DNA of 64,000 bases from Pseudopedobacter saltans DSM 12145 (GTDB taxonomy: Bacteria; Bacteroidota; Bacteroidia; Sphingobacteriales; Sphingobacteriaceae): assembly GCF_000190735.1 (NCBI RefSeq), contig NC_015177.1, forward strand, positions 1,302,001 to 1,366,000. The letters run 5' to 3'. Shown here in pieces: positions 20,961 through 58,167 of this stretch. A program made the position numbers and the translations under genes. The notes under the pieces are model-generated. The model searched no databases. It saw only the letters and a list, made by a program, of their open reading frames with translations, and was not told the DNA's origin. Each line of letters opens with the position of its first letter. Within the stretch, counting starts at the first letter, position 1.

Positions 20961-21003
20961 GCGTCATTTCGAGCGAACGTAGAGAGCCGAGAAATCCCTG
21001 ACA
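20961..21003. repeat. REP-like intergenic repeat
   Basis: GTCATTTCGAGCGAACG followed by TAGAGAGCCGAGAAATCC. An imperfect inverted repeat of the type seen throughout Sphingobacteriaceae genomes, with the GTCAT start shared by the IS110 insertion targets below. It lies 0.1 kb to the left of IS copy 1 and is intact. Confidence 0.65.
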
Positions 21004-21151
21004 TAGCAGCATTTATAAGGCAAAAAGCTTAAAGCTTAAGGCCGAAAGCAATTACATAGGCTAGCCCCTTCCACGTCATCGTAAGTTTGTAGGAAGAAGT
21101 TTGGAAAAGATTAAACGGAATATAATTTTGTTCAGTTAATAAGATCCAGCA

Positions 21152-21293
21152 GAGAGAAGGAATAAGACTTTAATTTGTCATTAGTCATTATAGACTCTTC
21201 GAGATGTTAGTCCCCTTCTCTCATTCTTATTATAACTTGGACAGTTCATTAGGCCTCAGGAGCCTGTTTTTACGATTGATAAGTCACGATAAG
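21152..21293 (+). ncRNA. Predicted IS110 bridge RNA (copy 1)
   Basis: Two stem-loops precede the transposase. The target-binding loop (21152-21222) is closed by GAGAGAAGG/CCTTCTCTC and GACT/AGTC, with an internal loop and a terminal AGTC/GACT hairpin. The 5' side, TTTGTCATT (21174-21182), matches the target GTCATC. The 3' side, CTTCGAGATG (21197-21206), can pair with CATCTTGAG of the right target through 9 consecutive positions including two G-U pairs. The donor-binding loop (21226-21293) is closed by CTTAT/ATAAG and ACTT/AAGT with an AGGC/GCCT hairpin. ACAGTTCAT (21241-21249) equals the element's right end, and TTTACGAT (21269-21276) is complementary to ATCGTAAG at its left end. RNA ends are not determined. 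Confidence 0.75.
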
Positions 21294-21327
21294 AAAGCTG
21301 TGATCCTCATTTTACGATTTTACAAAT

Positions 21328-22275
21328 ATGATAACAGGGATCGATTGTTCAAAGGATTATTTTGACATTGCAGTTTTAAAAGAAGGCAAATCAGCTTTCA
21401 AAGGCAGATTTACAAACAACTTAAAAGGTTTTAAGGATATGCTGCCGCATATTCTGGATACCCATGTGGCGATGGAAGCCACAGGCCCATATTATTTCCA
21501 ATTGGCAAGATTTTTATATGATTCAGGAATAAGAGTTTCGGTAGTCAACCCATTGGTTATACGCAGGTTTGCACAGATGCGAATGTCCAGGGCAAAAACA
21601 GATAAGAAAGATGCAATGGTCATAGCAGAGTTTGCACAGATGACCAGCCCCAGGTTATGGGAGCCGCCCACGGCGGCAATACAAAGCATCCGTAACCTTG
21701 AGACCTATCTTGAAGGACTAAAACAACGAAGGCATATGTTGTCCAGCCAGTTGCATGCATTTGAGGCAGCAGGTACAATAGATAAGTTATTATACAATGA
21801 GATCAAGGAGGAAGTGGAAAGCCATGATAAAAGGATTAAGGAGAAAGAGCGCCAGATAGATGGATTGATAAAGCAGCATTATGAAGAAATGGCTGGTAAT
21901 ATCAGAAGTATACCAGGTATAGGGCCAAGAAGTGTCTCTATGCTGATTATTGCTACAGATGGTTTTAGTATGTTTGAAAACTATAAGCAGGTCATATCTT
22001 ACTTTGGACTAGCCCCAAGGATATATGAATCAGGTACAAGTGTGAAAGGCAAAGGGCATATCTGCAAAATAGGAATGGGACAGGTTAGAAAAGTATTATA
22101 CATGGCTGCTACTTCTGCAATACGTTGCAACAAGGCCTGTAAAGATCTCTACGAAAGGTTGAGGGATAAAGGAAAACCTTACCGGGTAGCACTGATAGCA
22201 GCAGTAAATAAACTTATTAAGCAAGTATTTGCCATAGCTAAATCAGGAGAACCTTATAAAGCACAATTTGGCTAA
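21328..22275 (+). CDS. IS110-family transposase/recombinase
   Basis: 315 aa. An N-terminal RuvC-like DEDD domain has ITGIDCSKDYFDIAV (first Asp), VAMEATGPYYFQLARFL (Glu) and AKTDKKDAMVIAEFA (Asp pair). A coiled-coil linker spans about 130-190. The C-terminal Transposase_20 domain (SIPGIGPRSVSMLI, then SYFGLAPRIYESGTSVKGKG) holds the catalytic Ser. IS110 recombinases are guided to target and donor DNA by a bridge RNA encoded in the element, here the upstream non-coding region. The copy at 57152 differs by one residue (Ile here, Met there, about residue 248). The frame is intact and probably active. Confidence 0.95.
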   Translation: MITGIDCSKDYFDIAVLKEGKSAFKGRFTNNLKGFKDMLPHILDTHVAMEATGPYYFQLARFLYDSGIRVSVVNPLVIRRFAQMRMSRAKTDKKDAMVIAEFAQMTSPRLWEPPTAAIQSIRNLETYLEGLKQRRHMLSSQLHAFEAAGTIDKLLYNEIKEEVESHDKRIKEKERQIDGLIKQHYEEMAGNIRSIPGIGPRSVSMLIIATDGFSMFENYKQVISYFGLAPRIYESGTSVKGKGHICKIGMGQVRKVLYMAATSAIRCNKACKDLYERLRDKGKPYRVALIAAVNKLIKQVFAIAKSGEPYKAQFG

Positions 22276-22343
22276 TGCTAAATTAAACAGAATATTATTT
22301 TAGTGAATTTTAACTTTTTATTTGGATTTAAACACAGTTCATC

Positions 22344-22542
22344 TTGAGCGATCCCGAACGCTTTCGGGAGAGTCGAAAGATCTCTAACATAGTTGCACAA
22401 ACTGCTTCAACTTCCATAGCCAACAGATGTTTCCATTACGTTCCACTACAGCACACATACATTCTACTTACATAGCCAACAGATGTCTCCATTCCGTTTC
22501 ACTCAGTCGACGTGACTTCTTTAAAATGGCTAATACAATGAT
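22344..22542. repeat. REP-like repeat split from its start by IS110, plus a 56-bp-period duplication
   Basis: 22344-22385 continues the REP-like repeat interrupted by the IS (TTGAGCGATCCCGAACGC, TTTCGGGAGAGTCGAAAGA). Further right, CATAGCCAACAGATGT followed by TCCATT and CGTT occurs twice, at 22415 and 22471. No gene is visible. Confidence 0.6.
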
Positions 22543-56613: not shown

Positions 56614-56975
56614 CTTATTTTAATTAATTTTTGAAATACACTGATAGCCGCAACTAATTACATACCAAAATATTAGGAATTTCATTTTTGTATACCTGAT
56701 TAAGGAAGATTGTAAACCGGATGTAATGCATAAAGCATATGAGGCGGTAAGGAGTAAAGAGCAAGGAACAATGACTAATGTGCCTAAAGCATTCCTTTGG
56801 AAAACTAAAAAACCAGTTAACACCCCATTAAACATTAAACATCAAACATTCAACATTATATCCGTTCCTACTTTCTTGACAATGAACTCCCCCATCGTGT
56901 CATCGTAAGTTTGTAGGAAGAAGTTTGGAAAAGATTAAACGGAATATAATTTTGTTCAGTTAATAAGATCCAGCA

Positions 56976-57117
56976 GAGAGAAGGAATAAGACTTTAATTT
57001 GTCATTAGTCATTATAGACTCTTCGAGATGTTAGTCCCCTTCTCTCATTCTTATTATAACTTGGACAGTTCATTAGGCCTCAGGAGCCTGTTTTTACGAT
57101 TGATAAGTCACGATAAG
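56976..57117 (+). ncRNA. Predicted IS110 bridge RNA (copy 2)
   Basis: Same sequence as the predicted bridge RNA of copy 1: target-binding loop 56976-57046, donor-binding loop 57050-57117. Against the flanks of this insertion the left guide again matches GTCAT, while the right guide pairs with CATCCCGA with one mismatch, so the fit is weaker than for copy 1. Confidence 0.72.
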
Positions 57118-57151
57118 AAAGCTGTGATCCTCATTTTACGATTTTACAAAT

Positions 57152-58099
57152 ATGATAACAGGGATCGATTGTTCAAAGGATTATTTTGACATTGCAGTTT
57201 TAAAAGAAGGCAAATCAGCTTTCAAAGGCAGATTTACAAACAACTTAAAAGGTTTTAAGGATATGCTGCCGCATATTCTGGATACCCATGTGGCGATGGA
57301 AGCCACAGGCCCATATTATTTCCAATTGGCAAGATTTTTATATGATTCAGGAATAAGAGTTTCGGTAGTCAACCCATTGGTTATACGCAGGTTTGCACAG
57401 ATGCGAATGTCCAGGGCAAAAACAGATAAGAAAGATGCAATGGTCATAGCAGAGTTTGCACAGATGACCAGCCCCAGGTTATGGGAGCCGCCCACGGCGG
57501 CAATACAAAGCATCCGTAACCTTGAGACCTATCTTGAAGGACTAAAACAACGAAGGCATATGTTGTCCAGCCAGTTGCATGCATTTGAGGCAGCAGGTAC
57601 AATAGATAAGTTATTATACAATGAGATCAAGGAGGAAGTGGAAAGCCATGATAAAAGGATTAAGGAGAAAGAGCGCCAGATAGATGGATTGATAAAGCAG
57701 CATTATGAAGAAATGGCTGGTAATATCAGAAGTATACCAGGTATAGGGCCAAGAAGTGTCTCTATGCTGATTATTGCTACAGATGGTTTTAGTATGTTTG
57801 AAAACTATAAGCAGGTCATATCTTACTTTGGACTAGCCCCAAGGATATATGAATCAGGTACAAGTGTGAAAGGCAAAGGGCATATCTGCAAAATGGGAAT
57901 GGGACAGGTTAGAAAAGTATTATACATGGCTGCTACTTCTGCAATACGTTGCAACAAGGCCTGTAAAGATCTCTACGAAAGGTTGAGGGATAAAGGAAAA
58001 CCTTACCGGGTAGCACTGATAGCAGCAGTAAATAAACTTATTAAGCAAGTATTTGCCATAGCTAAATCAGGAGAACCTTATAAAGCACAATTTGGCTAA
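57152..58099 (+). CDS. IS110-family transposase/recombinase (copy 2)
   Basis: 315 aa, the same as the protein at 21328 except Met for Ile at about residue 248 (GHICKMGMG). DEDD and Ser motifs are intact. Both copies are full length, so either can act on either element. Confidence 0.95.
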   Translation: MITGIDCSKDYFDIAVLKEGKSAFKGRFTNNLKGFKDMLPHILDTHVAMEATGPYYFQLARFLYDSGIRVSVVNPLVIRRFAQMRMSRAKTDKKDAMVIAEFAQMTSPRLWEPPTAAIQSIRNLETYLEGLKQRRHMLSSQLHAFEAAGTIDKLLYNEIKEEVESHDKRIKEKERQIDGLIKQHYEEMAGNIRSIPGIGPRSVSMLIIATDGFSMFENYKQVISYFGLAPRIYESGTSVKGKGHICKMGMGQVRKVLYMAATSAIRCNKACKDLYERLRDKGKPYRVALIAAVNKLIKQVFAIAKSGEPYKAQFG

Positions 58100-58167
58100 T
58101 GCTAAATTAAACAGAATATTATTTTAGTGAATTTTAACTTTTTATTTGGATTTAAACACAGTTCATC

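What the first reader, a model, noticed from the sequence alone, without database searches (positions are those of the whole stretch)
21075..22343. IS110 element with a readable bridge RNA: guides match the element ends and its insertion target
Seen: the 5' non-coding region folds into two loops. The target loop carries GTCATT on its 5' side and CTTCGAGATG on its 3' side around a terminal AGTC/GACT hairpin. The donor loop carries ACAGTTCAT (equal to the right end, 22334-22342) and TTTACGAT (complementary to ATCGTAAG at the left end, 21078-21085). Known: IS110 recombinases, typified by IS621, use a bridge RNA in which left guides match the top strand and right guides pair with it. Applied here, the right target guide pairs with CATCTTGAG of the target over 9 positions, two of them G-U. 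All four guides are therefore accounted for with a common TCATC core. The assignment of strand and loop order follows the IS621 model from memory.
Basis: partly seen in the sequence, partly recalled or inferred. Interest (0 to 1): 0.85.

Follow-up and report, generated by a model that had tools for sequence, protein, structure and literature searches.

The report
REP-targeting IS110 with legible bridge RNA

Summary
Confirmed. 21078-22342 is an IS110-group element: a 315-aa DEDD/Ser recombinase whose only PDB relatives are IS621 and ISCro4, preceded by a bridge-RNA gene. The right target guide (RTG, CTTCGAGATG here) changes with the inserted-into sequence. Fifteen distinct guides pair with 4.92 of the 5 bases after CAT, against 2.88 for swapped guides (0 of 20,000 permutations as good). 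Donor guides stay constant with constant ends and change when the ends change. RNA helices show compensatory changes. A sister type (84%) in the same genome differs in its RTG and sits in a different repeat class. The targets are left arms of REP-like palindromes GTCAT-NNY-GA..., and unoccupied copies that complement the guide better than the occupied sites exist in this genome. The circle junction would create a Bacteroidota promoter, TTTG-N20-TAAGTTTG. Corrections: the core is probably AT rather than TCATC, and conserved RTG pairing covers 8 positions rather than 9. RNA expression and recombination are not shown. Novelty: a new member of a known kind; natural retargeting of such elements has been described before.

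The parts
21078..22342 (+). IS110-group element, AT core to AT core (shared TCAT 21076-21079 / 22339-22342); an almost identical second copy lies at 56899-58167
21328..22275 (+). IS110 recombinase, 315 aa; DEDD residues D6, E50, D92, D95 and catalytic Ser S235 (IS621 D11, E60, D102, D105, S241)
21096..21308 (+). predicted bridge RNA (5' end inferred from the junction promoter, 3' end from the basal helix; neither measured)
21116..21130 (+). 5' stem-loop CGGAAT-ATA-ATTTTG
21177..21181 (+). left target guide (LTG) GTCAT, same letters as the left target
21183..21196 (+). terminal hairpin AGTC/GACT of the target-binding loop, with compensatory changes in relatives
21197..21206 (+). right target guide (RTG) CTTCGAGATG; pairs with CAT + NNYGA of the right target
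21241..21249 (+). left donor guide (LDG) ACAGTTCAT, identical to the right end 22334-22342
21269..21276 (+). right donor guide (RDG) TTTACGAT, complementary to ATCGTAA at the left end
22321..22324 (+). TTTG, -33 box of the promoter predicted across the circle junction
21082..21089 (+). TAAGTTTG, -7 box of the junction promoter (TTTG-N20-TAAGTTTG only when RE joins LE)
21075..21079 (+). left target half GTCAT
22343..22384 (+). right part of the interrupted REP-like palindrome, CTTGAGCG...GTCGAAAGATCTC; its right arm AAGAT pairs with ATCTT of the left arm
56899..58167 (+). second copy of the same type, in the REP-like site GTCAT|CCCGACCGCAGCGGAGGGATC

Best explanation
An IS110-group insertion sequence encodes a bridge recombinase and, in its left end, a bridge RNA. 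The element excises as a circle (inferred). The RE-LE junction then forms a Bacteroidota-type promoter, TTTG-N20-TAAGTTTG, that drives the RNA (sequence shown, use inferred). One loop of the RNA recognises the circle junction: LDG ACAGUUCAU matches the right end and RDG UUUACGAU pairs with the left end. The other loop recognises the left arm of REP-like palindromes: LTG GUCAU matches the left half, and RTG CUUCG-AG-AUG pairs with CAT-CT-YGA. The recombinase then exchanges strands at an AT core. Target choice is set mainly by the three RTG letters next to AUG. In this genome two types carry different letters and sit in different REP classes: the guide here complements the CTC class, that of the sister type the TGC class.
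For: Protein: Pfam PF01548 + PF02371; IS621 8wt6 E=7.9e-39 and ISCro4 9t56, catalytic residues aligned. Guide covariation: a scan of every leader column, not told where the guide is, picks the RTG column (mean 6.06/7; best of 300 permutations over all columns 5.17). For 15 distinct guides, 4.92/5 pairs against a null of 2.88, maximum 4.02, p<5e-5. Natural pair in one genome: RTG CTTCGAGATG in CATCTTGAGC/CATCCCGACC versus CTTCGCAATG in CATTGCGAG(G/C), with identical ends. Donor guides: ACAGATCAT in both RE and LDG of L104; LE CCTA with RDG TAGGAT in L051, L052, L104, L105. RNA structure. REP census: 117 GTCATNNYGASS sites versus 28 for the reversed-pattern control; unoccupied CTC-class sites fully complementary to the guide over CAT+NNYGA, one sharing the inner sequence of the interrupted site. 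Junction promoter in nearly all relatives.
Against: No RNA or recombination data could be obtained. The second copy (L002) sits in CATCCCGACC, with a mismatch at the second guided position. L067 and L109 also deviate. The LTG is short (GTCAT) and varies little in this clade, so its covariation rests mainly on L106. The predicted fold pairs part of the LDG with the RDG side (helix 8, nearly invariant), so the free state of the donor loop is not certain. Related elements are not statistically independent.
Confidence: 0.95

Rival explanations
1. The recombinase protein alone recognises REP palindromes, and the leader similarity to flanks is a by-product, for example of captured REP fragments.
For: REP-targeting by transposases was earlier attributed to the protein. 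The recombinases differ by about 15% between the two types in this genome.
Against: The matching letters sit in one aligned column of a conserved RNA loop in all relatives, as the complement and not as a copy, with G-U pairs tolerated; swapped guides do not fit. Hairpins around them show compensatory change. The closest solved relatives are RNA-guided.
Confidence: 0.03
2. The leader structure regulates the recombinase mRNA, as reported for small RNAs of ISPpu9, and does not guide insertion.
For: The structure lies in the 5' region of the gene; sRNA regulation is known for an IS110 relative (search result, PMC8450116).
Against: Regulation does not predict that loop letters follow the insertion site and the element ends. 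A dual role is not excluded.
Confidence: 0.02

Closest known systems
IS621 bridge recombinase/bridge RNA (IS110 group; Durrant 2024 PMC11208160, Hiraizumi 2024 PMC11208158; PDB 8wt6)
   Same: DEDD + Ser protein; bridge RNA in the left end with 5' stem-loop, target loop, donor loop; LTG/LDG match the top strand and RTG/RDG pair with it; REP target; promoter created at the RE-LE junction
   Different: Likely AT core instead of CT; leader of about 250 nt instead of about 190; conserved RTG pairing of 7 bases from the core (IS621: 4); Bacteroidota sigma-A type junction promoter instead of sigma70; different REP family; recombinase only distantly similar
ISCro4 bridge recombinase (PDB 9t56)
   Same: Homologous recombinase, E=1.3e-37
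   Different: RNA and target not compared here
ISEc11/ISXne4 and ISEc21 seekRNAs (Siddiquee 2024, PMC11187229)
   Same: Natural redirection of closely related elements by change of the target-matching RNA letters
   Different: ISEc11/ISXne4 are IS1111 type, with the RNA at the other end; a two-member comparison, whereas here 15 guide types share one architecture
ISPa11, ISPpu9, ISPpu10 (IS110 elements in REPs; Tobes & Pareja 2006, PMC1525189)
   Same: IS110 family, associated with REPs in all copies counted there
   Different: Proteobacterial REPs; guides not compared here

Membership tests
[quoted passage not shown]
   D6, E50, D92, D95, S235 invariant in the alignment
IS110 family, IS110 group | long non-coding end upstream of the recombinase gene (LE longer than RE) | tested here: met
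   LE about 250 nt, RE about 70 nt
IS110 family, IS110 group | scarless insertion at a specific site with a short shared core | tested here: met
   fixed junctions in all copies; a homologous unoccupied site reads GTCATCTCGAGCGATCCCGAACG; an orthologous empty locus was not found
IS110 family, IS110 group | circular intermediate | not testable with these tools
   needs junction PCR or reads
Bridge RNA (IS621 type) | 5' stem-loop, then two stem-loops with internal loops | tested here: met
   both-side changes in helices 2 and 4-9; helix 1 (5' stem-loop) varies on one side only; not in Rfam
Bridge RNA (IS621 type) | first loop: 5' side matches and 3' side complements the target, covarying with it | tested here: met
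   RTG; LTG covariation weaker
Bridge RNA (IS621 type) | second loop does the same for the donor (RE-LE junction) | tested here: met
   variation limited to a few relatives
Bridge RNA (IS621 type) | promoter reconstituted across the RE-LE junction | tested here: met
   sequence only: TTTG-N20-TAAGTTTG in most relatives, consensus from PMC7366714; transcription untested
Bridge RNA (IS621 type) | RNA transcribed, bound by the recombinase and required for recombination | not testable with these tools
   needs RNA sequencing and in vitro recombination
IS1111 group | RNA gene in the right end downstream of the recombinase | tested here: not met
   RNA in the left end
IS1111 group | subterminal inverted repeats of 7-17 bp | not tested
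   no inverted-repeat search was run on the ends
REP (target) | many extragenic imperfect palindromes of a common sequence | tested here: met
   inverted arm found in 27 of 40 scanned flanks (two of the 40 are artefacts of contig ends; per-flank chance mostly 0.05-0.15); 117 sites versus 28 control in the genome; REP-associated transposase (RAYT) not looked for

The most novel reading that the evidence does not exclude
A lineage of bridge-RNA elements follows the evolving REP classes of its hosts. The recombinase, donor half and RNA scaffold stay fixed, and retargeting happens through only two or three RTG letters. The next guide position often uses G, which pairs with both C and T and so covers the YGA variation of REPs. 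Two such programmes coexist in one genome.
Probability: 0.55. Interest if true: 0.5.

Novelty: new member of a known kind. Interest (0 to 1): 0.42.

Why it matters
It gives an independent natural test of the bridge-RNA model in Bacteroidota. Fifteen guide types on one scaffold pair with their own targets. The series shows how such elements retarget by two or three letters while keeping the donor side, and offers a probably AT-core recombinase with a host-type junction promoter as a candidate tool for Bacteroidota. It does not change the mechanism already published.

Tried and rejected
Rfam: no family reaches threshold, even at E<=1; no bridge-RNA family matched, so a family-made alignment was used instead. 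Two REP searches used a pattern with one N too many (GTCATNNNYGA...) and found no more than chance; the corrected pattern is the one used. An orthologous empty site in congeners was sought with joined flanks and not found; only paralogous REP sites matched. The plasmid collection held nothing useful. The inverted-arm test includes two artefact rows, L068 and L069, whose right flank is a contig end. DNA folding of three target sites gave only weak hairpins, so the palindrome claim rests on the inverted arms and on repetition. TCATC as core was rejected in favour of AT. A calibrated covariance model was not built: the alignment evidence was already decisive.

Full report
What is there. The window holds two near-identical IS110 elements, 21078-22342 and 56899-58167. 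The same chromosome carries four copies of a sister type at 84% DNA identity. The 315-aa product matches PF01548 and PF02371. Among solved structures only IS621 (E=7.9e-39) and ISCro4 (1.3e-37) are hit, and the IS621 catalytic residues D11, E60, D102, D105 and S241 fall on D6, E50, D92, D95 and S235. These are invariant in the relatives aligned. Relatives at 57-89% protein identity were found mainly in Sphingobacterium and Pedobacter, and at 41-47% elsewhere in the phylum.

The observation. The leader folds into two stem-loops in a common basal helix. The alignment of 12 relatives gives a 5' stem-loop, a target-binding stem with the AGTC/GACT terminal hairpin, and a donor-binding stem. 97.5% of cells pair and 11 pairs have both-side changes; none of 500 shuffles reaches either value, and slid controls pair at 38-48%.

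The decisive test: right target guide. For each element the sequence after the right CAT was compared with every position of its own leader. Without being told where the guide is, the scan picks the RTG column: mean 6.06 of 7 positions paired, against at most 5.17 for the best column in 300 permutations. Collapsed to 15 distinct guide types, 4.92 of 5 positions after CAT pair, against 2.88 on average and 4.02 at most in 20,000 permutations. Per position, 25 distinct guide-target pairs give 25, 23, 25, 24 and 25 paired at positions 1-5 after CAT, and only 15 and 9 at positions 6-7. So the conserved RTG reach is CAT + 5, not the nine positions read by eye.

Examples: CTTCGAGATG with CATCTTGAGC (this element); CTTCGCAATG with CATTGCGAGG (sister type, and 11 copies in Sphingobacterium sp. 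CZ-2); CTTCGCTATG with CATAGCGAAC; CTTCAGGATG with CATCCTGAGC; GTGTTCTATG with CATAGAACCT; GCTCACCATG with CATGGTGAGC; CTCGAGAATG with CATTCTCGTG.

Donor side and left target guide. In the close clade the ends (CGTAAGTTT... / ...ACAGTTCAT) and the donor guides are constant. Where the ends differ the guides differ with them: RE ACAGATCAT with LDG ACAGATCAT (L104); LE ATCCTATG with RDG complement ATCCTA (L051, L052, L104, L105). The left target guide GTCAT matches GTCAT targets, and becomes ACGACAT in L106, whose left target is ACGACAT. LDG and RDG overlap in exactly AT, and the first base after AT differs between donor and target in most elements. By analogy with IS621, where the cut follows the core dinucleotide and the T is nearly invariant, the core is AT. 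IS621 accepts an engineered AT core.

Target. The insertion point is the left arm of REP-like palindromes, GTCAT-NNY-GA... with the inverse of ATNNY downstream (27 of 40 flanks scanned). This genome has 117 GTCATNNYGASS sites against 28 for the reversed control; of the first 100 listed, 41 are TGC class and 10 CTC class. The sister type is programmed for TGC. The window type is programmed for CTC, of which an unoccupied array lies at G000:C1:1495283-1498024; one member shares the inner sequence GATCCCGAACGCTTTCGGGAGAG with the interrupted site. The window insertion itself is in a CTT-class palindrome, read through one G-U pair. The second copy is in a CCC-class site with one mismatch in the conserved reach. 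That a guide G covers both C and T of the YGA in REPs follows from the counts but is an interpretation.

How it would be expressed. Joining RE to LE gives TTTG-N20-TAAGTTTG (TATGTTTG in some relatives) in nearly all members of the lineage. It fits the TTTG/TAnnTTTG consensus of the Bacteroidota primary sigma factor (PMC7366714). IS621 does the same with a sigma70 promoter. Transcription is inferred.

Comparison. It works like IS621 and meets the features of the IS110 group and the bridge RNA that could be tested; circle formation, RNA expression and catalysis could not be tested. REP-targeting IS110s are known, covariation of guides and targets is the basis of the published model, and natural redirection was reported for ISEc11/ISXne4. 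Whether this lineage was among the thousands of elements in the published analysis is not known here. What this adds is a clean retargeting series in one lineage, two programmes coexisting in one genome, and a probable AT core. Interest is moderate.

Noticed in passing
L004 1501-2900 (G000:C1:702289-703668): A full sister-type copy stands next to a fragment of another copy's left end that stops exactly at AGTCAT inside that copy's bridge-RNA gene. It looks like insertion into a bridge gene's own guide-like GTCATT, followed by loss of the rest of the older copy, probably by homologous recombination.
   Followed up: partly
L108, L112, L114-L116 (G455:C1:111081-138739): Five copies of a 46%-identical relative within 28 kb, with a CT-like core and flanks AAACC(A/G)C | TTGTTA that resemble integron attC ends; possibly an IS110 that targets gene-cassette sites.
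   Followed up: no
G000:C1:1494900-1498300 (L134): Array of alternating REP-like palindromes, GTCATCTCGAGC on one strand and GTCATTCCGACC on the other, unoccupied by the IS.
   Followed up: partly
window 20963-20997, 27561 and 27097 (minus strand): Further REP-like palindromes of other classes (TTC, TGC), one about 110 bp upstream of the element.
   Followed up: partly
window 57152-58099: The recombinase of the second copy differs from that of the first in one residue (M instead of I at position 248); relatives have M.
   Followed up: no
window 21114-21128 and about 22285-22301: A direct subterminal repeat AAC(G/A)GAATAT(A/T)ATTTT occurs in both ends; only the left copy forms the 5' stem-loop.
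   Followed up: no
L073 2246-3430: This relative (Sphingobacterium micropteri) has an in-frame TGA in the recombinase and three extra bases at its left end that spoil the N20 promoter spacing; probably a decayed copy.
   Followed up: no
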